Positions 34,308 to 56,695 of a stretch of DNA of 64,000 nucleotides are shown in pieces. Position 1 is the stretch's first letter; every line of letters begins with the position of its first letter. The notes below the pieces were generated by a model that saw only the letters and a list, made by a program, of their open reading frames with translations, was not told where the DNA came from and did no database searches. The DNA comes from a virus: positions 22,771 to 86,770 of the IMG/VR virus record IMGVR_UViG_3300042519_001303; one strand, given 5' to 3'. Both the position numbers and the translations under genes were made by a program.

Positions 34308-34777
34308 TGATATTGTTTAACTTTTCTGTATTGGCCCGTCCAGCAGATTCAATAGCACTCCGTCAGCCAGATCCACAAGGGCTTTATATTTGGCGTATGT
34401 TGCATGAACAGTCACTTGGACGCATATGCCTAGTAGTTAATGAGGACTACAGCAAATTAGTACTTGAAGATTGGCTTAAAAAAGAAGGAATAAAACCTTC
34501 ATTTTATGAAATGCTTGATGAACCTGACCCTTATCTACAGGCAGAGAAGATAAACCGTATTGGTGCAATATTTGGCAAGCCGGAATGGTACGTAGATAAC
34601 AACCCTAGAACCTGTGCAGAGCTACTTAAACTAGGCATGGCTACCCTTTTAATTGCTTCCCCTTATCTAGTACGACCTGAATGGTCTAACATGAAGATAA
34701 TAAAAGAGTGGGATGTTTTAGTTGAGGAATTAGACAGTCAAGCCCTAAAGGCTGCTGAGAAGACCTGGAGAGAGTAA
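34307..34777 (+). CDS. Unknown protein, possible HAD-like fold
   Basis: GTG start overlapping the previous TAG. 156 residues. ICLVVNEDYSKLVLEDWLKKE and WYVDNNPRTCAELLKLGMAT look like the strand-helix pattern and the DNNP motif of degenerate HAD-type proteins, in which a late Asp follows a strand. The N-terminal catalytic DxD is not seen, so enzymatic activity is doubtful. Transcribed with the next gene, overlapping by one base. Confidence 0.5.
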   Translation: MILFNFSVLARPADSIALRQPDPQGLYIWRMLHEQSLGRICLVVNEDYSKLVLEDWLKKEGIKPSFYEMLDEPDPYLQAEKINRIGAIFGKPEWYVDNNPRTCAELLKLGMATLLIASPYLVRPEWSNMKIIKEWDVLVEELDSQALKAAEKTWRE

Positions 34778-36204
34778 TGCACATATTCTTTGGAGGTGCT
34801 GAAAAAGGCACCCATAGAAACCTACTTATAGCTAATGACATAACTAGAGTAGCTGTTAACGTCACTCACTTACCTATCCCAAAACGTAAAGAGTTTAATC
34901 CTCAAGAGGTATTTGCCTCCGCTGAAATACTGGTGTACACATCAGAGGGGGATGAAGACCTTAATAAGTACGAAACTTTCGTAAGAGACCACGCTGACTC
35001 CCTATCAGTTGTTATTGGGCGTCCTGATATGGATGGAGACTGGCTGGGAGACAAGTATGTCCCGGTATGGTCAGATGACGACGATTTAGAAAGATTGGCA
35101 TGGTTATGTCAACGTTATGGTAGAGCTGCCATATCAGACAAGGCTATAAACTCTAAAACACTTCCGCGTATCCGGTCCCTCTCGCAGCGTTGGGGAGCAA
35201 AGCTTTATGGTTTAACAAGTAAACCTGATGTTATCCAATCATTACCTTGGGAAGCTGTTGTAGTGGGATCATGGACCTCATCCATACGCTACGGCGAAAC
35301 CCAAATATGGGACGGTCATGGTCTCCACAGATACCCTGCGCAGCAGAAAGAATCTGCTCGTAAAAAGCATAGAGCAGACATTTTAAGATTAGGTATTGAT
35401 TACGATGCAATCTTAGAAGATAACGTAACGGCGGTTGGGTCACTTGCAATCAAGTCTTGGAAGGCCTGGGAGCAGTCCACATTTTTGGGCTATGACCCCC
35501 AAGTTATTGATGATGAGTCCGAGTTTGGAGAGGTAGAAGAGGGGGATATAGTTGCTATACCCCCTATGTCACCTAATGCGGATAAACCGGTTTCTAAGGG
35601 GGGTAATATTGCTATCTCCCACCTAGAGAAGCGGCACGAAAGTGACCGTGTATTGCTACCGGTTATGGGCATAGAACATATCTTGTCAATGGGTACACAA
35701 AGTGGCTCTGAACAGGGAGAACACATAGAAATTGCCCCTACAGAGACACCTGTTATTAGGTACCAAAGTGGTCCTCTACGACAATGCGATAGTTGCTATC
35801 TTGCATCGCGTTGTCCTGCATTCAAGGAACATTCAGATTGTGGGTTTAAGTTACCTGTAGAAATACGTTCTAAGGATCAGTTAAACGCTGTTCTACAGGC
35901 CATGATTGAGATGCAAGCTAGCCGAGTTTTGTTTGCAAGATTTGCTGAAGAACTGGAAGGCCAAGGTCTTGACCCAGCTTTGTCATCAGAGATGGATAGG
36001 TTATTCTCCCTCATTGACAAGTTCAAGAATATTTCTGACACCCGTGATCTTATGCGTATTGAAGTGGAAGCAAGAGGTAACGCAGGGGTACTTTCTAGAC
36101 TGTTTGGTAGCAAAGCTGGAGAAACAGCTAGACAACTTCCTAGTGGAGGATTGGGCCCAAATCAGACTGACCAATTTATTCAAGATGTAATTGACTTAAG
36201 CTAA
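34777..36204 (+). CDS. Unknown 475-aa protein with Cys cluster
   Basis: The N-terminal ~170 residues are alpha/beta (MHIFFGGAEKGTHRNLLIAN; SLSVVIGRPDMDGDWLGD; AKLYGLTSKP). The centre is acidic and disordered. A cysteine cluster CDSCYLASRCPAFKEHSDC lies near residue 340, then a helical C-terminal region (MDRLFSLIDKFKNISDTRDL). The helical end is somewhat like small terminase or sigma-type regions, but I cannot assign either. It forms an overlapping trio with the two genes before it. Confidence 0.5.
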   Translation: MHIFFGGAEKGTHRNLLIANDITRVAVNVTHLPIPKRKEFNPQEVFASAEILVYTSEGDEDLNKYETFVRDHADSLSVVIGRPDMDGDWLGDKYVPVWSDDDDLERLAWLCQRYGRAAISDKAINSKTLPRIRSLSQRWGAKLYGLTSKPDVIQSLPWEAVVVGSWTSSIRYGETQIWDGHGLHRYPAQQKESARKKHRADILRLGIDYDAILEDNVTAVGSLAIKSWKAWEQSTFLGYDPQVIDDESEFGEVEEGDIVAIPPMSPNADKPVSKGGNIAISHLEKRHESDRVLLPVMGIEHILSMGTQSGSEQGEHIEIAPTETPVIRYQSGPLRQCDSCYLASRCPAFKEHSDCGFKLPVEIRSKDQLNAVLQAMIEMQASRVLFARFAEELEGQGLDPALSSEMDRLFSLIDKFKNISDTRDLMRIEVEARGNAGVLSRLFGSKAGETARQLPSGGLGPNQTDQFIQDVIDLS

Positions 36205-45226: not shown

Positions 45227-47440
45227 CTAGGCTAGGAATCCGATAAGAGCTTTCTCAATTTCCTTAGGAAGATCCATGACGTTATCAATACCAATTGCTA
45301 CGTCACCACCCTTTTTAGCCACTAGATCTTTGGCGTAACCAGGAGTACCAAGACCTACTAACAACCAATACTGTCCGGGTTCTACGAATGGTTTAATTGA
45401 ATTAACATACGACCATTCTCCGTCAGTGAGTATAACAACCAGGTGTCGTTGTTTACCCGCATTTTGATTTTTAATTTGGCGTAATCCTTCAAGTGGATTC
45501 GTTCCACCACCATCATGAATTAGCACTGGCGTGATCGGTTCATCGTTATCCCAGATCATGTATGGTTCAGTGTCAAAGGTAGATACTGTGCATGGAACAC
45601 CTAGGCTATCGCAAGCACTACGAATACCATAAGCAGCAACGGAAAGTTGATCCATCCATCCTCCCATAGATCCTGAAGTATCTAACATAACAGATACCGC
45701 AAGACTATGGCCATGAGCGCCTTCGCCTTCGTAGTCCACCCAGTAGTCTGAGTCACCAGGTTCGTGCATCTTGTATGACGTTGGGTCAAGCACACCATGT
45801 TCCTGACGGAAACGCCATGCTGGGTCGGCAGTCAATGCTAATGGTTCAAGAGCCGATAACATTTGATTGGCTACTGCAATAGAATCAACTAACAAGTTAC
45901 TTGGCATTTCTGATACTGCACCGTTATGTGGCAAGTCTCTCATAAGTTCTGAGTTGATCTCGGAGATTAGTTGACCTATTTCTTCGTCAGTAACAACACG
46001 CTTCATTGCTTCTGCCGCTTTTTGTTTAAGATCCTCACGGATCTTGGCATAGTCAACATTTTCTTTGATTTGACCGCCAGTGCCTTTAGTACCACCAGTG
46101 TTGTTAATGAATTCTGTTGCAGTCTCATTACCATCTTTAGTGGGTGCTTCACCGTTAGCCTTACCTTCACCTTCCTTACCACCACCAGGTGACTCTTCTC
46201 CCTCCTCAGAGGATTCTTTCTTGGATTCACCTGGTTTTGTTTCCCAACCTTTTTCTTCGTTACCAAACGTTGGCTTCTTAGTTACTTGGGTTGCACCATT
46301 GTGCCCACTCTTGTGGTCACCTCCTGTAGGGTTAGGAGTACCTTTGCCTTCACGACCTCTACTATCGTCTGGTCGTGGTTCCTGACCATTGTTTGCACCA
46401 GTGATCCACTGCGTGATTAGGTTATGCAATTGCCATACAGCAATAACAACATCTGTTGCTGATCTCGACTCACGGTATACATGGACTTGGTTTTCAATTT
46501 GATCAACTAATGATATATCCATATCATTATCTAATGCAAACTTATATGCCAACTGACGAGCATTATCCATAAGCTCTTGATCTAAGTAAGATCTAGTCGT
46601 AACAAACGGCCATGAGTAACCAGGCTTAGTATCATCATTGATGTAGTTCAGCACAAGAGCAGTAAAATAGTCAATCAATGGAGGACTATTTATCACCATC
46701 TCTTCTTCCATGCGTCCATCTTCCAATAGATTCCATGATATTTGGATAGCATCAGCAAACGGTCTGTAGTGTTGCTGATGTGCATACCACTTATTAGTAA
46801 TGTTAGTTGCTGGATTAACAACTCTTTCACCAAATGGCACTCTGTCAAATACTGTAACTAATGAGCTACGAACATCCTCATAAGCTGGATACAGATTTGC
46901 AAACTCATCACCCCAACGAGTGTCGTGTGGGTTGATTGCAACAGGTAATAACCCATTGTCCATTAGTGCACAGTCAAACAGAGCTGACCACGGAAGAGTG
47001 CACAAAATGTGACCGCCTTCGTGATAAACAACTCCCTTGAGAGCAGCCAAAAGGCTACCAATCTTGTCCATGTCTGACGGATCAACCATACCCATATCGA
47101 ACGAGATGTTTATACCTTTAAAATCCGTAGCAGCATTTACTGATCTAGTTTCATTACGGTAATAGTTAACATCTAGCTTGAGTGGTGGATTGATACCCAA
47201 AGAAGTAAGAACCTTACGTGCTCGGTCGGCCAGCACATATGCAGTGGCCCTAATAGCTCGTGGATCATGCTTGCTTTTGGCAGAAAGGAAAGTCTTTTCA
47301 ACTATTTGGTCGTTTGAGTAAATTAACTCTAAGACTTCTTTGTTGTAAGACTCTCTAATCTTTGTAGCTTCACGACGGTTAAAGGAGCGGGCACTAGCAC
47401 GTCGTGCTAGTGCCTCCTCATCAAACTTTTTCTTTACCAT
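45227..47440 (-). CDS. VWA-domain protein with HEGGH motif (CobT/metallopeptidase-like), partner of MoxR ATPase
   Basis: 737 residues. The N-terminal half contains VVYHEGGHILCTLPW (HEGGH at 140-144), an HExxH zincin-like motif. An acidic, Gly/Lys/Glu-rich linker spans ~350-460. The C-terminal VWA domain has a full MIDAS: DTSGS at 587-591, Thr in GGGTNP and Asp in LTDGE. Same layout as CobT and DUF2201-type proteins that work with MoxR AAA+ ATPases in metal insertion or protein remodelling. No cobalamin genes are nearby, so a CobT role is doubtful. Confidence 0.8.
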   Translation of the reverse strand: MVKKKFDEEALARRASARSFNRREATKIRESYNKEVLELIYSNDQIVEKTFLSAKSKHDPRAIRATAYVLADRARKVLTSLGINPPLKLDVNYYRNETRSVNAATDFKGINISFDMGMVDPSDMDKIGSLLAALKGVVYHEGGHILCTLPWSALFDCALMDNGLLPVAINPHDTRWGDEFANLYPAYEDVRSSLVTVFDRVPFGERVVNPATNITNKWYAHQQHYRPFADAIQISWNLLEDGRMEEEMVINSPPLIDYFTALVLNYINDDTKPGYSWPFVTTRSYLDQELMDNARQLAYKFALDNDMDISLVDQIENQVHVYRESRSATDVVIAVWQLHNLITQWITGANNGQEPRPDDSRGREGKGTPNPTGGDHKSGHNGATQVTKKPTFGNEEKGWETKPGESKKESSEEGEESPGGGKEGEGKANGEAPTKDGNETATEFINNTGGTKGTGGQIKENVDYAKIREDLKQKAAEAMKRVVTDEEIGQLISEINSELMRDLPHNGAVSEMPSNLLVDSIAVANQMLSALEPLALTADPAWRFRQEHGVLDPTSYKMHEPGDSDYWVDYEGEGAHGHSLAVSVMLDTSGSMGGWMDQLSVAAYGIRSACDSLGVPCTVSTFDTEPYMIWDNDEPITPVLIHDGGGTNPLEGLRQIKNQNAGKQRHLVVILTDGEWSYVNSIKPFVEPGQYWLLVGLGTPGYAKDLVAKKGGDVAIGIDNVMDLPKEIEKALIGFLA

Positions 47441-47455
47441 GATTCCTCCTCAGGA

Positions 47456-48736
47456 TCAGTATGGTTCCTCATCAGAGATGAGGGACGTAAGGTCAACTGC
47501 TGGTGCAGTAGCGGCAGGTTCAAACTCATCACGCATCATGACCGCAATACCACGATCTTTGATGATCTCGTTCACCACAATCTTTTCTTGTGATGACACG
47601 AACTGGCCCATGAAGGCCCAGAGACTGAAGTCAACTCCAAGATGAACCAAGTCACCTTCAAGCAACTGTAATGCTCTAGTACCAACAGGGGTAGTAATGC
47701 TACGTTGTGCACGAGCATTACGTAATGCTTGACCAAGCAGACGAACTGCTGGTGACTTGATCAATTTCTTCTCAACCTCTTCGTCATATCCCCATTCAAG
47801 GAGCTTGAAGCGGTTAGCGAAGGCCTCGTTTGTCTTGGCCATTCCAGCGTAGCCTGGGTTCCATGAAGCCATGATCCACAGGTTCTTATTCGCCACTACT
47901 GTTTCTGGGCGATAAGCACCGTGGTGCGTCTCAACACCAGTCACTTCGTCAACCTCAACCGTGCCTTTCCAGACAGGCTTACGGATGTTGACAAACTGAT
48001 GACGATTGTCAAGCAGTGGGTGAATAGCCGCTGTTACTGAACCTGACATGGCGTTAACCTCGTCAAGGTACAAGATACCGCCAAGACGAGCGGCGAGAGC
48101 AACGATGCCCTCCATCCACACAAGCCGTTCTTGTCCATTCACGATGATCGGACGATACTGACCGAATAGGTCGTGGTCGGTAATCGCTGATGAACCTGCA
48201 AGCAGGAACAACGGCAATGGCTTCTGAAGGCCGAGCAACTTCGCAATACGGAACGCTTGAACTTGGATCAAGTATGTCTTACCCGACTGGGTATCGCCTA
48301 CCAAGGCAACGGATACTGGGTAACCATCGTTCTCATCACGACGATTGAAATAACCTTCCATTACTTCAAGGTCTGTCTTACCGCCTGCCAGAACACGAGA
48401 CACATAATTGCGTGGATCGATATTCGGACGGAAGTCGTCCAATGCGGGGTCGTCGAGACTGTCGATACGCATATCGCTGATGATTACGTTGCCAACTTGT
48501 GATGTTATGGTGCTGGACGGGGCGGCGTTTGCAACGCTAGCACGTCCAATCAACTCCACACCCTTAGGCAATATCTCGACAGTGCCTAACAGTGTATCGT
48601 CAAACATCACTTGAATCTTGCTACCAGGTCCCCCTGGTACAAGCGTACTGCGGGTGATTACCCCTTCAGCATCCTTGAATGGTGGGTACTTGCCCACCAC
48701 TCTCATACCTACTCGCAACTCTTTGACACTGGCCAT
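47456..48736 (-). CDS. MoxR/CobS-type AAA+ ATPase
   Basis: 426 residues after AAGGAGGACAACAAA. An N-terminal SH3/KOW-like beta domain (residues ~8-65, MRVVGKYPPFKDAEGVI) is followed by Walker A GDTQSGKT at 147-154, Walker B ILYLDEVN at 221-228 and LAGSSAITDHDLFGQ, a MoxR-type loop. MoxR ATPases remodel proteins together with VWA partners; the VWA gene is 15 bases downstream. GC is visibly higher here than in the tail genes (58% in the 60 bases from 48061 versus 30% from 2041). Confidence 0.85.
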   Translation of the reverse strand: MASVKELRVGMRVVGKYPPFKDAEGVITRSTLVPGGPGSKIQVMFDDTLLGTVEILPKGVELIGRASVANAAPSSTITSQVGNVIISDMRIDSLDDPALDDFRPNIDPRNYVSRVLAGGKTDLEVMEGYFNRRDENDGYPVSVALVGDTQSGKTYLIQVQAFRIAKLLGLQKPLPLFLLAGSSAITDHDLFGQYRPIIVNGQERLVWMEGIVALAARLGGILYLDEVNAMSGSVTAAIHPLLDNRHQFVNIRKPVWKGTVEVDEVTGVETHHGAYRPETVVANKNLWIMASWNPGYAGMAKTNEAFANRFKLLEWGYDEEVEKKLIKSPAVRLLGQALRNARAQRSITTPVGTRALQLLEGDLVHLGVDFSLWAFMGQFVSSQEKIVVNEIIKDRGIAVMMRDEFEPAATAPAVDLTSLISDEEPY

Positions 48737-51194: not shown

Positions 51195-51223
51195 ATCCAC
51201 TCCTCCTTTGTTGTTTTAGTGGG

Positions 51224-51296
51224 CGCACCAGGCAGGGGTCGAACCTACAACCTACAGATTAGAAGTCTGTTGCTCTATCCATTGAGCTACTGGTGC
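51224..51296 (-). tRNA. tRNA-Arg(UCU)
   Basis: On the minus strand: acceptor GCACCAG pairs with CTGGTGC; D arm AGCTCAATGGATAGAGC; anticodon stem ACAGA/TCTGT with loop CTTCTAA (anticodon TCT); T arm with GGTTCGACCCC. CCA is not encoded. Decodes AGA, a common codon here (for example in LRR/IRR stretches of the tail genes). Confidence 0.9.
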
Positions 51297-51776
51297 AGTG
51301 TATGTTTTTATTTATACAGTAAAAAACATACAAAAACCTGACTATGTGATCACGGGAGCAGTACCCCGAGGTAAAACCAGTCCGCCTGGTTTTCTAATCC
51401 ACGTCTTATGTATAAGCTTAAGAATGCGTTACAACAAGCAACTACCGCAAACCGCAACCCTGTTATACATAGGTAGGAGTAACACCTGTATCCCTGCAGT
51501 GTAATTTGCCCGATAGGGAATTCCGGGTTACTAGGGCTTACACATTGCCCATCAGCAACTTGATACCCAGTAGCTTATTCCTGGGGACATATTTAGGGGG
51601 TAAGACAGCGATGCTGCTAAAGGGCGTCTTTCGCCCGGCATCTAAGCCAAAACTGCCTTACCCAACGCTTTGTAGAATGACATCATTAAAGGGTATACAC
51701 CTAACAACAAGCCCTAGATATCACTCAGCAAGTGTCGTGTCCTCTACTTAGGCCAAGTATGTCAAATGGCCCAATC
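51297..51776 (-). ncRNA. Candidate large structured RNA next to tRNA-Arg
   Basis: 480 bases without a gene between tRNA-Arg and the gene ending at 51777. Helices visible: 51300-51309 with 51322-51331 (10 bp), 51373-51380 with 51386-51393 (8 bp), 51407-51415 with 51463-51471 (9 bp), 51531-51539 with 51709-51717 (9 bp, closing a 169-base domain), 51598-51608 with 51653-51663 (11 bp), inner 51610-51614 with 51638-51642 and 51622-51626 with 51632-51636, and 51566-51570 with 51581-51585. One pair in the 11-bp helix is G-U on the minus strand but A-C on the plus strand, supporting leftward transcription. TTGACA at 51764-51759 may be a -35 box. Confidence 0.65.
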
Positions 51777-51998
51777 CTAAACTCTTTGTCTGCGGTAGTA
51801 CTCCACCGCACGATTATAAGCGGCAACGGCTGTAATTGTTTCTTCACCATCACTCCAGCCGATGTTGTCAGCTAAGCGAATAATTCGCATGCCAACCTTT
51901 TGGCCGTAAGTCTTGATGATGTACTCCTCTACCTCGACGTTCTCATTGTTAGTGAGTCGTCGGTAGAGCTTGTCGCCCAAGTTATTTAAAGGATTCAT
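51777..51998 (-). CDS. Unknown protein (73 aa)
   Basis: Starts after AAGGAGGTGTC. Helical and basic at both ends (LGDKLYRRLTNNENVEVEEY; VAAYNRAVEYYRRQRV). Four-base overlap with the HTH gene upstream. Unrecognised. Confidence 0.55.
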   Translation of the reverse strand: MNPLNNLGDKLYRRLTNNENVEVEEYIIKTYGQKVGMRIIRLADNIGWSDGEETITAVAAYNRAVEYYRRQRV

Positions 51999-52357
51999 GA
52001 CACCTCCTTGTGTGCATAAGAGTTGCCGAGCATCCTCGGATGTCGTGTGGGCAGATTATGCCCGCTACGGCGGAGTAAGAATATCCGCTGATTTACCGAG
52101 GCAACAGTTCGCCCCAATCTTTTAGCCATATCTTTGGGGAGATAACCTTCCCCATACATACTCACTATCTGCTCGTCGTCCCAATCGGTCCATCTGGCCT
52201 TGCCAGTTCTGTCTTTGAAGAACTGGTCTATTTTGCTGATGAACGCTTCTGACTCTTCATCATTTAACCCCATTGCTGAAGCGAGCATCTTCAAAGCCTG
52301 GTCAGGCTCGAGGATACCATCAACACAAAGGTCAACGATGAGTCTTTCCTTAGTCAT
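51995..52357 (-). CDS. Myb/SANT-like helix-turn-helix protein
   Basis: Start at 52357 after AAAGGAGACATT. 120 residues. RWTDWDDEQIVSMYGEGYLP then KDMAKRLGRTVASVNQRIF resembles a Myb/SANT or GcrA-type HTH: W..WDDEQI ... MAKRLGRT..SV..R. Probably a DNA-binding regulator. First protein gene after the leftward intergenic region, so it may control this block. Confidence 0.65.
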   Translation of the reverse strand: MTKERLIVDLCVDGILEPDQALKMLASAMGLNDEESEAFISKIDQFFKDRTGKARWTDWDDEQIVSMYGEGYLPKDMAKRLGRTVASVNQRIFLLRRSGHNLPTRHPRMLGNSYAHKEVS

Positions 52358-52385
52358 AATGTCTCCTTTCGTTGTCATAACATTA

Positions 52386-52462
52386 TGGTGCCACCAGCAG
52401 GACTTGAACCTGCGACCCAGGCATTATGAGTGCCTTGCTCTAACCAACTGAGCTATGGTGGC
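52386..52462 (-). tRNA. tRNA with CAU anticodon (Met or Ile2)
   Basis: Minus strand: acceptor GCCACC/GGTGGC, discriminator A and encoded CCA; anticodon stem AGGCA/TGCCT with loop CTCATAA (CAT); T arm GGTTCAAGTCC. The first acceptor pair is G-C rather than the C-A mismatch of initiator tRNA, so it is elongator Met or, with lysidine modification, Ile2 for AUA. Confidence 0.9.
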
Positions 52463-52503
52463 TTTTTTCGCCCAAACCTATAATCATCCCCTTTTATATA
52501 AGA

Positions 52504-52613
52504 GATGGTAGAGTCACTGCTCTAGTCAATGATGGTAGAGTCAGTGATGCTAGAGTCAGTGGGATTTAGACACTGGTCTAGTCAATGGTCTTGCCAGTGA
52601 AGGTGCAGGCAGT
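52504..52613. repeat. Degenerate 12-15 bp tandem repeat array
   Basis: Eight head-to-tail units of 15, 12, 15, 15, 14, 12, 12 and 15 bases. Examples: GATGGTAGAGTCACT, GATGGTAGAGTCAGT, GATGCTAGAGTCAGT, with shorter GGTCTAGTCAAT forms. Lies in the ~570-base gene-free stretch between the tRNA and the gene at 53033. The rest of that stretch (52614-52922) holds palindromes and inverted repeats, but no gene was seen. Confidence 0.7.
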
Positions 52614-52783: not shown

Positions 52784-52834
52784 GTGACATTTGTCACGTA
52801 GCGAGGCATAAGTCACTCAATATGACATATGTCA
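52784..52834. promoter_or_regulatory. Two operator-like palindromes
   Basis: TGACATTTGTCA (in GTGACATTTGTCAC, 52784-52797) and perfect TGACATATGTCA (52823-52834), centres 38 bases apart. A related inverted site lies at 53774-53790. They sit upstream of the leftward tRNA/HTH transcript; binding partner unknown. Confidence 0.55.
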
Positions 52835-52922: not shown

Positions 52923-52964
52923 CAAAAAAAACCAACCGATAGGTGCGTAACCTATCGGTTTTTA
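52923..52964. terminator. Terminator, bidirectional
   Basis: AACCGATAGG-tgcgtaa-CCTATCGGTT with an A run on the left and a T run on the right, so it acts on both strands. Second of two terminators downstream of the gene at 53033. Confidence 0.85.
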
Positions 52965-52967
52965 GAT

Positions 52968-53014
52968 ACAAAAAAAGAGAGGGGGTAGTGAGGGCATTAC
53001 ACCCTCACCACCCC
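52968..53014 (-). terminator. Leftward terminator after 53033 gene
   Basis: Minus strand GGGGTGGTGAGGG pairs with CCCTCACTACCCC (one mismatch), followed by CTCTCTTTTTTT. Lies 18 bases after the stop of the leftward gene. Confidence 0.85.
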
Positions 53015-53032: not shown

Positions 53033-53755
53033 TCAGTCCAGACTGAACTCAGGCTCAAGTTGATTGATCGTTACGAACAACGCATCAACCTTATCCCTAA
53101 GTTCTTTGACTAACTCCTTTTCCTCAAGCGTGATGTGACCACCAGTGCCACGAGGTAGCAGTTGCTTGTCGGCGGTCTCAATTGCCGTGATGGCTTTCGC
53201 CAATTCACTAGCAGGTGTGACCACTTTCTTCGCTCGTACTGCGGGAGCATTGCCATTAGCAGTTTGGACTGCTTTCTTGATCTCTCGTGCCACCTCAAGG
53301 TCACTTCCCTTGAGTTTGATACGAGTCGCCTCATTGCCCTTGACCCAACGCCAAGTATCAACATCGGTCAAGCCATTGTTCACACGCTTCAGCGTAGCGA
53401 AACGAGACTGAACAGAACCAATCTCACCGTTCTTTCGACATTTGTTGACGAAGTCTAGGACTTCTTTTGCCAACTCTGAGTCGGTGATCTCGGTGTTCTT
53501 GACCACGATCGCTGTCCAACGGAGACCGCTAAGCATATTCTCGCTGATGGCGAGTCGCTTCGCTTCCTCTTTCGCTGTCTTACGGTCGTGGATTAGATCG
53601 CTAAGAACGACGGGGAGAAGTAAAACATCTTTCCCGTAATTACTACCGTTCTCGCAATACTCTGCGAGCCTGGCAACGATCTGCTTCTGCTGATCAAGAG
53701 TCAGCGGTTCGTTTGTAGACGGCACCACTCCTCCCTCAACTGTTGAGTTTGTCAT
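53033..53755 (-). CDS. Unknown protein (240 aa), higher-GC gene
   Basis: Predicted mainly helical, Lys/Glu-rich (LAEYCENGSNYGKDVLLLPV; KRVNNGLTDVDTWRWVKGN). No motif recognised. Its GC is clearly above its neighbours (55% in the 60 bases from 53521), and it has its own two terminators and operator-like upstream site, so it is a single-gene transcription unit. Possibly a regulator of the divergent promoters or a recently acquired gene. Confidence 0.6.
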   Translation of the reverse strand: MTNSTVEGGVVPSTNEPLTLDQQKQIVARLAEYCENGSNYGKDVLLLPVVLSDLIHDRKTAKEEAKRLAISENMLSGLRWTAIVVKNTEITDSELAKEVLDFVNKCRKNGEIGSVQSRFATLKRVNNGLTDVDTWRWVKGNEATRIKLKGSDLEVAREIKKAVQTANGNAPAVRAKKVVTPASELAKAITAIETADKQLLPRGTGGHITLEEKELVKELRDKVDALFVTINQLEPEFSLD

Positions 53756-55527: not shown

Positions 55528-56271
55528 ATGGGGCTGTTACGTAACGCAAGTGGATTGCTGATCCCTGATGCATTTGGTGGTAAACCAGGTAGAGCTGACG
55601 ATCCAGAATTCCATATACGTAGACTTCACCATTTTGGTCAAGGTATGGGTGTTGATTTAACTTCTACACACCCTAATTTTAGTAGGAAACATATTGCCAG
55701 AAGTCCTGTTAGTGCTATTCCAACAGACCTACTTCAAATGGATAGTCATGGTGAGGGGATACACTTACCTCAAGGACATATTAATGCTGGTAGTGACGCT
55801 ATTCAACTTGAAATGGGGTCTGAATGGAGAAAGTCCGATAAAGCACTATCTGAGTTACACCACCGTGCACCTTTTCATAACTATGCGAGAACTGCTCCTC
55901 GAGGAAGTATGTATGGAAACATATCCAAAGAAATATCTGATGGTGACCGTTTTGCAACTATATCAGAGCCTTGGGACCAACAAGGTTCACAATCTTTTAA
56001 AGATGCTGATAAGCTAATAAGAAGTGAGTTTGGAAATCAAAACCGTAATAGAAGTGTACCAAGTACTGACACTCTTGCAATAGTTAATCGGGCTATTCAA
56101 CATCCAGCTGAAGAAAGTATGAGGGTTAGTCGTAGGCAACTGCCAAGTGAACTTAGTCCTCAGTTTTTAAGCGTTAGACATTTTGAAAATGACAACATAG
56201 ATAGTGACCACATTGACCTTGAGACAGGAAATTGGGCTAAAATAGATCCTGAAGGTTACTTCCCAGATTAA
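55528..56271 (+). CDS. Unknown protein (247 aa)
   Basis: Starts after AAAGGATTAAATT, with a TATAGT-like box 30 bases upstream. His- and Arg-rich (HIRRLHHFGQGMGVDLTSTH; ELHHRAPFHNYARTAPRGS). No motif recognised. Probably virion-associated like its neighbours. Confidence 0.55.
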   Translation: MGLLRNASGLLIPDAFGGKPGRADDPEFHIRRLHHFGQGMGVDLTSTHPNFSRKHIARSPVSAIPTDLLQMDSHGEGIHLPQGHINAGSDAIQLEMGSEWRKSDKALSELHHRAPFHNYARTAPRGSMYGNISKEISDGDRFATISEPWDQQGSQSFKDADKLIRSEFGNQNRNRSVPSTDTLAIVNRAIQHPAEESMRVSRRQLPSELSPQFLSVRHFENDNIDSDHIDLETGNWAKIDPEGYFPD

Positions 56272-56281
56272 AGAGCTGAAC

Positions 56282-56695
56282 ATGCCACACGGACACCCAG
56301 ATAACTACCCAGATAGAAGTAACGAACCAAATAGAAGGGCATTTGGTCGTCCTACCCCAAGAATTGACGCGTTAATTAACAACACTCTTGCCTTAGGGCC
56401 TGGTCGGGGTACGCTCAATATTGTTCCCAATGCTGGATCTCGTGTAACTGCTGCGCACAGGAAAAACAGAGCTGAAATGCTTGGTATGGGAGATCTACTA
56501 CCAGCAGTTGCAAATATGCCAAATGATGAGTATTCAAATGAACTAAGAGAAACCTATGCTGAAAGCTTATCAAAGGCAACCGATAGATTTGAGGGCACTT
56601 CAACTAGTATTAAGGGCGCTTTAGCTAAAAGACACGAAATACGTGCAGATGCTAAAAATATGGCAGAAGAGAAATTTGAGTGGCCAGATGAGTAA
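56282..56695 (+). CDS. Unknown protein (137 aa)
   Basis: Basic N terminus with His and Pro/Asn (MPHGHPDNYPDRSNEPNRRA), then a helical second half (ELRETYAESLSKATDRFEG). Starts ten bases after the previous stop. Unrecognised. Confidence 0.55.
   Translation: MPHGHPDNYPDRSNEPNRRAFGRPTPRIDALINNTLALGPGRGTLNIVPNAGSRVTAAHRKNRAEMLGMGDLLPAVANMPNDEYSNELRETYAESLSKATDRFEGTSTSIKGALAKRHEIRADAKNMAEEKFEWPDE

What the first reader, a model, noticed from the sequence alone, without database searches (positions are those of the whole stretch)
51297..51776. Large structured RNA candidate adjacent to tRNA-Arg, possibly GOLLD/ROOL-like
In an otherwise densely packed leftward gene block, 480 bases carry no gene but contain at least eight helices found by eye, several long-range: 51531-51539 with 51709-51717 (9 bp), 51407-51415 with 51463-51471 (9 bp), 51598-51608 with 51653-51663 (11 bp, stacked on two further helices), plus 51300-51309 with 51322-51331 (10 bp) and 51373-51380 with 51386-51393 (8 bp). 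The one non-Watson-Crick pair in the 11-bp helix is G-U on the minus strand but A-C on the plus strand. GOLLD and ROOL are known large phage-associated RNAs, often encoded near tRNAs, whose function is still unclear. I cannot match this sequence to their consensus, so it may be one of them, a divergent member or a new class. I see no tmRNA or RNase P core.
Basis: partly seen in the sequence, partly recalled or inferred. Interest (0 to 1): 0.92.

Follow-up and report, generated by a model that had tools for sequence, protein, structure and literature searches.

The report
New large structured phage RNA
This gene-free stretch of an uncultured phage genome encodes a previously uncatalogued, roughly 410-480-base folded RNA that ends three bases before a transfer-RNA gene; it resembles the mysterious GOLLD and ROOL phage RNAs in setting and style but belongs to neither family.

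Summary
In detail: 51298-51773, minus strand, is a real structured RNA gene, not a protein gene. Five related phage contigs carry it directly upstream of the same tRNA-Arg(TCT). Sequences are 64-73% identical between lineages, yet the helices are kept: 98.8% of cells pair, and 19 of 68 pairs change on both sides (0 of 500 shuffles; slid controls 1-5). A search with no preset structure finds the 3' hairpin, a nearby hairpin and a long-range pseudoknot covarying beyond coding controls.

It is not GOLLD or ROOL by covariance model (no match at E<=10), while those models find true members in Mycobacterium phage Bongo and Lactobacillus phages. Nothing else in Rfam matches. Bongo's GOLLD also sits about 10 nt upstream of a tRNA-Arg. 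Sister phages carry a second, unrelated-looking ~540-600-nt structured RNA in the same slot.

Most likely: a leftward-transcribed RNA, freed by tRNA processing, acting as a folded RNA in lytic infection, perhaps as a homo-oligomer (a self-complementary loop changes letters but stays self-complementary in three of four lineages). Expression and oligomerisation are untested.

The parts
51298..51773 (-). structured non-coding RNA (type I), 5' end at about 51773, 3' end abutting tRNA-Arg
   Evidence: homologues L002, L003, L004, L007, L012; covariation; no Rfam match
51749..51773 (-). P1 5' hairpin, 51773-51767 with 51755-51749; 4 of 7 pairs change on both sides
51758..51763 (-). PK1 5' arm (loop of P1, GACAUA) pairing with 51591-51586; long-range pseudoknot, 2 pairs compensated
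   Evidence: also found with no preset structure
51586..51591 (-). PK1 3' arm (UAUGUC)
51598..51663 (-). P3, 51663-51653 with 51608-51598 (11 bp, one G-U)
   Evidence: 3 of 7 tested pairs compensated (GGG/CCC to AUA/UAU)
51566..51585 (-). Ha hairpin CCCAG/CUGGG with conserved loop, start of the conserved core
   Evidence: invariant
51534..51550 (-). Hb hairpin GGGC/GCCC whose loop forms PK2
   Evidence: invariant stem
51538..51543 (-). PK2 5' arm (GUGUAA) pairing with 51504-51499 (UUACAC)
   Evidence: A-U, G-U and G-C alternate; found unaided
51499..51504 (-). PK2 3' arm
51509..51527 (-). Hc hairpin CCCG/CGGG
   Evidence: invariant stem
51517..51524 (-). self-complementary 8-mer GGAAUUCC in Hc; GGUUAACC in L007, GGAGUUCC in L012, absent in L002-L004; candidate self-kissing contact
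51394..51498 (-). hypervariable linker, 89-105 nt, with lineage-specific helices
51373..51393 (-). Hd hairpin AAAACC/GGUUUU
   Evidence: A-U to G-C in L003 and L004; one break in L002
51353..51368 (-). He hairpin CGGG/CCCG with loop forming PK3
   Evidence: 2-3 pairs compensated
51358..51363 (-). PK3 5' arm (UACUGC) pairing with 51345-51340; 4 of 6 pairs in the window, UACUGC/GCAGUA in L002, UGUUGU/ACAACA in L007
   Evidence: 88.9% of cells paired, 3 pairs compensated
51340..51345 (-). PK3 3' arm
51300..51331 (-). Hf 3'-terminal hairpin, 51331-51322 with 51309-51300, three nt before the tRNA in six of six
51220..51297 (-). tRNA-Arg (TCT), follows the RNA in every homologue
51777..51998 (-). 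73-aa gene of unknown family just upstream; replaced by another gene in L012 and in type II loci
51995..52378 (-). 127-aa gene, weak match to phrog_323 (D5-like transcriptional regulator)
52386..52462 (-). tRNA-Met (CAT) at the head of the leftward block
52934..53014 (-). two intrinsic-terminator-like hairpins (53014-52982, 52960-52934), likely upstream edge of the transcription unit that holds the RNA
   Evidence: 2 found, 0.3 expected

Best explanation
A phage-encoded non-coding RNA gene of a new class. SHOWN by comparison: a leftward RNA of about 410-480 nt with P1, P3, a compact invariant core (Ha, Hb, Hc), three pseudoknots (PK1 ties the 5' hairpin to the core), a hypervariable linker, and a 3' domain (Hd, He, Hf) that ends three bases before tRNA-Arg. 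INFERRED: it is transcribed in one unit with tRNA-Met, two small genes and tRNA-Arg. RNase P cutting at the 5' end of tRNA-Arg sets the RNA's 3' end, which explains the fixed spacing and the lack of a terminator. The freed RNA then acts in lytic infection as a stable folded particle in the manner of GOLLD and ROOL. LEAST CERTAIN: copies associate with each other through the self-complementary Hc loop and other loops.
For: Six homologues (four lineages) keep 98.8% of 408 cells paired; 19 of 68 pairs change on both sides (shuffles 8.9, sd 1.9, none of 500 reach it; slid controls 1-5). A scan with no preset structure finds 3 helices with at least 2 compensated pairs, against 0 in 12 of 13 coding control windows and 1 in the other. 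G-U 10 to A-C 1 fixes the strand. No conserved frame. Spacer ACU or GCU before the tRNA in six of six. The upstream gene changes while the RNA-tRNA pair stays. No minus-strand terminator-like site occurs between the RNA and the tRNA, and two lie upstream of the block. In Mycobacterium phage Bongo, which shares a homologue of the next gene, a true GOLLD ends about 10 nt before a tRNA-Arg. Hc loop: GGAAUUCC, GGUUAACC, GGAGUUCC, the kind of palindrome switch that was read as intermolecular pairing in OLE and GOLLD (PMC12286853).
Against: No transcript data. Only four lineages, so no R-scape-grade statistics. The helix blocks were chosen by eye, which inflates the percentage of cells paired. RNAalifold finds 17 of 80 pairs compensated here, but also 4-12 of 52-143 in coding control windows, so counts alone are weak. 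The palindrome is missing in L002-L004, and GG/CC closing a 4-nt loop is a local alternative. A conserved 8-bp alternative helix (CUGAUGGG with CCUAUCGG) competes with Hb and Hc. No sigma-70-like promoter was found on the minus strand.
Confidence: 0.5

Rival explanations
1. A monomeric folded RNA acting in trans, with no self-assembly (as the raiA motif is a monomer), binding a phage or host protein or RNA.
For: Everything shown fits equally well. The self-complementary loop is absent in one of four lineages. raiA RNA stayed monomeric under the same conditions in which GOLLD, ROOL and OLE multimerised (PMC12286853).
Against: The setting, linker and loop palindromes resemble the RNAs that do multimerise; no partner protein gene is always beside it.
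Confidence: 0.3
2. A cis-acting 5' leader of tRNA-Arg (or of the downstream genes) that governs processing or read-through rather than a free RNA.
For: A fixed three-base spacer before the tRNA in six of six; the RNA and tRNA-Arg are always together.
Against: A leader would not need about 450 nt with three pseudoknots. Sister phages carry an unrelated-looking RNA in the slot before the same tRNA.
Confidence: 0.15
3. A diverged GOLLD or ROOL that the Rfam models cannot reach.
For: Same kind of host virus and same setting: GOLLD lies before tRNA-Arg in Bongo. Conserved and variable domains coexist, as in GOLLD and ROOL.
Against: No match at E<=10 in nine records while true members score 128-216 bits. 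Our core model finds nothing in Bongo, LP65 or Lb338-1. No long 5'-3' closing helix as in ROOL; about half the length of GOLLD.
Confidence: 0.1
4. Not an RNA gene: a DNA-level element or a decayed gene whose inverted repeats are accidental.
For: Single-sequence fold z is only about -2.5 on both strands.
Against: Compensatory changes, the 10 to 1 G-U over A-C ratio and the unaided helix scan.
Confidence: 0.03

Closest known systems
GOLLD RNA (Rfam RF02032)
   Same: Large folded phage RNA beside tRNAs; in Mycobacterium phage Bongo it ends about 10 nt before tRNA-Arg, as here. Has conserved and variable parts, loop-linker pseudoknots and covarying palindromic loops (PMC12286853).
   Different: No covariance-model match. 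This RNA is 411-479 nt, GOLLD often exceeds 800; different sequence motifs.
ROOL RNA (Rfam RF03087)
   Same: Phage RNA near tRNAs, several pseudoknots, a variable linker in the 3' half (PMC12286853).
   Different: No match, while the model finds ROOL in LP65 and Lb338-1. No long 5'-3' closing helix found here; shorter.
Long non-coding RNAs of phage K and ICP1
   Same: Large abundant phage RNAs compared with GOLLD and ROOL by location or length (PMC9241854, PMC7567579).
   Different: Core model R1 finds nothing in phage K or ICP1.
Type II RNA of the sister phages L013/L015 and L017 (found here)
   Same: Same slot before the same tRNA-Arg(TCT); about 540-600 nt; 8 compensated pairs between two sequences.
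   Different: No detectable sequence or model similarity to type I in either direction.

Membership tests
GOLLD (RF02032) | match to the family covariance model over the gathering score of 150 bits | tested here: not met
   0 of 9 records at E<=10; positive control Bongo 216 bits
GOLLD (RF02032) | encoded by a phage or prophage next to tRNA genes | tested here: met
   tRNA-Arg three nt downstream; virus record
GOLLD (RF02032) | large size, many members over 800 nt | tested here: not met
   411-479 nt in six homologues
GOLLD (RF02032) | 14-mer cage; expression rises in lysis | not testable with these tools
   no RNA or structure data
ROOL (RF03087) | match to the family covariance model over 99.1 bits | tested here: not met
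   0 of 9 records at E<=10; positive controls 213 and 128 bits
ROOL (RF03087) | long helix joining 5' and 3' ends | tested here: not met
   5' end forms P1 and PK1, 3' end forms Hf; ROOL consensus shown
ROOL (RF03087) | variable linker between conserved parts | tested here: met
   89-105 nt linker without shared sequence; analogy only
ROOL (RF03087) | octameric cage | not testable with these tools
   no structure data
RNase P RNA, group I/II introns, OLE, HEARO and the other Rfam families | Rfam match | tested here: not met
   only tRNA reaches gathering; no relevant family at E<=10, nor in four related loci at E<=1
tmRNA | ARAGORN tmRNA gene or Rfam tmRNA match | tested here: not met

The most novel reading that the evidence does not exclude
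Two unrelated classes of large structured RNA (types I and II), both new, alternate in one genomic slot before tRNA-Arg in a single clade of phages, as GOLLD occupies a similar slot in Mycobacterium phage Bongo. At least type I assembles into an RNA-only oligomer through a self-complementary loop whose letters change but whose self-pairing is kept. Phages would then repeatedly recruit cage-like RNAs of independent origin to the same place and role.
Probability: 0.25. Interest if true: 0.9.

Novelty: new variant of a known kind. Interest (0 to 1): 0.72.

Why it matters
The function of GOLLD and ROOL is an open question. New, shorter RNA classes of the same kind, in the same setting, allow comparison: what they share (a place next to a tRNA, pseudoknots, a variable linker, self-complementary loops) is more likely to be what the function needs. 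At 411-479 nt this class is a smaller target for in vitro structure work. The slot exchange between type I and type II makes 'same job, different RNA' directly testable.

Tried and rejected
Rfam at gathering and at E<=10: only tRNA; RF04354 hits are tRNA antisense. Low-score model matches in G023/L072 and G009/L212 lie over coding frames and were rejected as chance. Three bacterial contigs matching a core pattern lie in unrelated sequence and were rejected. BLASTN against 50,697 phage records finds only the tRNA part for the window region and nothing significant for L012 or L017. The ATPase neighbour gave no prokaryote-genome relatives. Distant ATPase relatives (55% identity or less) show no tRNA at the locus (the one found, in L073, is several kb away on the other strand) and no type I core. 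Type I and type II as one family: tested both ways, no match. Helix P2 (GUAGA/UCUAC) was left out of the test because its partner is ambiguous in L002-L004.

Full report
SETTING. The window is the last 64,000 bases of an 86,770-base virus record. Its genes mark it as a tailed phage with a baseplate wedge protein, DnaB-like helicase, DNA polymerase and UvsX-like recombinase. The nearest annotated relatives of two neighbouring genes are in Gordonia and Mycobacterium phages, so an actinobacterial host is likely but not shown.

THE OBSERVATION. Between the stop codon at 51777 and tRNA-Arg(TCT) at 51297 there is no gene. Taken alone the sequence folds only a little better than shuffled sequence, equally on both strands, so the claim needed homologues.

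HOMOLOGUES. Searches with two neighbouring proteins and BLASTN gave five distinct relatives: L002, L003, L004, L007 and L012. L005 is a truncated contig whose 87-nt remnant of the RNA is identical to the window. In all of them the RNA lies directly before tRNA-Arg(TCT). The RNA is 64-73% identical between lineages. The gene upstream differs in L012, so the unit that travels together is RNA plus tRNA-Arg. No reading frame is conserved.

STRUCTURE. An explicit model has P1; PK1, in which the P1 loop pairs with a segment before the core; P3; Ha; Hb; PK2; Hc; a short linker hairpin; Hd; He; PK3; and Hf. Counted on six sequences, 98.8% of cells pair and 19 of 68 pairs change on both sides (shuffled 8.9, sd 1.9, 0 of 500). 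Sliding the partner by 1-3 columns leaves 1-5 such pairs. Because I chose the blocks by eye, I also ran an exhaustive search for gap-free helices with no preset structure. The RNA region has 3 helices with at least two compensated pairs (Hf, He, PK1); of 13 coding control windows from the same phages, 12 have none and one has one. As a caution, RNAalifold reports 17 of 80 compensated pairs here but also 4-12 in coding windows. G-U cells outnumber A-C cells 10 to 1 on the minus strand, which fixes the sense strand.

WHAT DIFFERS FROM THE FINDING. The 51531/51709 helix uses an insertion present only in the window and conflicts with Hb and PK2. The 51407/51463 helix lies in a linker (89-105 nt) that has no shared sequence among homologues.

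THE 3' END. The last hairpin Hf is followed by ACU or GCU and then the first base of tRNA-Arg in six of six. No minus-strand terminator-like site lies between 51150 and 52650, while two lie upstream of the block at 53014-52934. I infer that the RNA is part of a leftward unit headed by tRNA-Met and that RNase P frees its 3' end; this is not tested.

NOT GOLLD OR ROOL. The Rfam models for GOLLD and ROOL find nothing at E<=10 in the window's record and eight relatives. The same tool finds ROOL at 213 and 128 bits in Lactobacillus phages Lb338-1 and LP65 and GOLLD at 216 bits in Mycobacterium phage Bongo. In Bongo the GOLLD ends about 10 nt before a tRNA-Arg, and Bongo shares a homologue of the gene just downstream of our tRNA. 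The setting is therefore the same kind, with a different RNA. Core model R1 finds nothing in Bongo, LP65, Lb338-1, phage K, ICP1 or phage G.

A SECOND RNA IN THE SAME SLOT. Sister phages L013/L015 (identical) and L017 (ATPase neighbour 79-81% identical) carry a different sequence of about 540-600 nt before the same tRNA-Arg. Between the two sequences, 128 predicted pairs are all kept and 8 change on both sides; slid controls give 0-1 (the structure was derived from the same pair, so this flatters it). Models of the type I and type II cores do not find each other. Rfam has no match for type II either.

HOW IT MAY WORK. Published GOLLD and ROOL RNAs form empty cages of 14 and 8 copies, held by kissing loops and A-minor contacts; in GOLLD and OLE, palindromic loops whose letters switch together support contacts between copies (PMC12286853). 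Type I has a loop with GGAAUUCC in the window, GGUUAACC in L007 and GGAGUUCC (self-pairing with two G-U) in L012; L002-L004 lack it. That is suggestive, not proof: GG/CC closing four bases is a local alternative, and an invariant 8-bp helix competes with Hb and Hc. I put the reality of a new structured RNA class at about 0.93, action as a free RNA in infection at about 0.7, and homo-oligomer formation at about 0.35. The stated confidence of 0.5 is for the explanation as a whole.

LIMITS. Four independent lineages, no transcript data, no metagenome scan, host not established.

Noticed in passing
L013:5055-5594, L017:4440-5045: A different ~540-600-nt structured RNA (type II) occupies the same slot before tRNA-Arg(TCT) in sister phages; no Rfam match; a hairpin with the palindromic loop region CUGCAG is conserved in both.
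   Followed up: partly
L218 (Mycobacterium phage Bongo JN699628.3, about 56,107-56,520): True GOLLD (216 bits) about 10 nt before a tRNA-Arg(ACG), with a tmRNA about 770 nt upstream.
   Followed up: yes
window 52500-52590 (-): Several imperfect direct repeats (CATTGACTAGA / CACTGACTCTA[GC]CATC) just upstream of tRNA-Met, followed by TTATATAAAAGG: possible phage-specific promoter or binding sites.
   Followed up: no
window 52787-52797 (-); L013:3975, 4014; L017:4088, 4107, 4146; L004:3251: GTGACAAATGT repeat upstream of the tRNA/RNA block in several relatives (0.05 expected by chance in the window).
   Followed up: partly
window 52934-53014 (-): Two strong intrinsic-terminator-like hairpins in a row between gene 53033-53755 and the tRNA-Met block.
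   Followed up: partly
window 45227-48736 (-): AAA ATPase (phrog_249, porphyrin-biosynthesis-like) next to a 737-aa protein with a stretch similar to CobT-like proteins of Gordonia phages: a CobS/CobT-like pair.
   Followed up: no
window 34777-36204 (+): Queuine tRNA-ribosyltransferase family gene (phrog_887, E 9e-38), a tRNA or DNA modification gene.
   Followed up: no
window 51510-51555 (-): Alternative helix CUGAUGGG/CCUAUCGG, possible in all six homologues, competes with Hb and Hc: possible conformational switch.
   Followed up: partly
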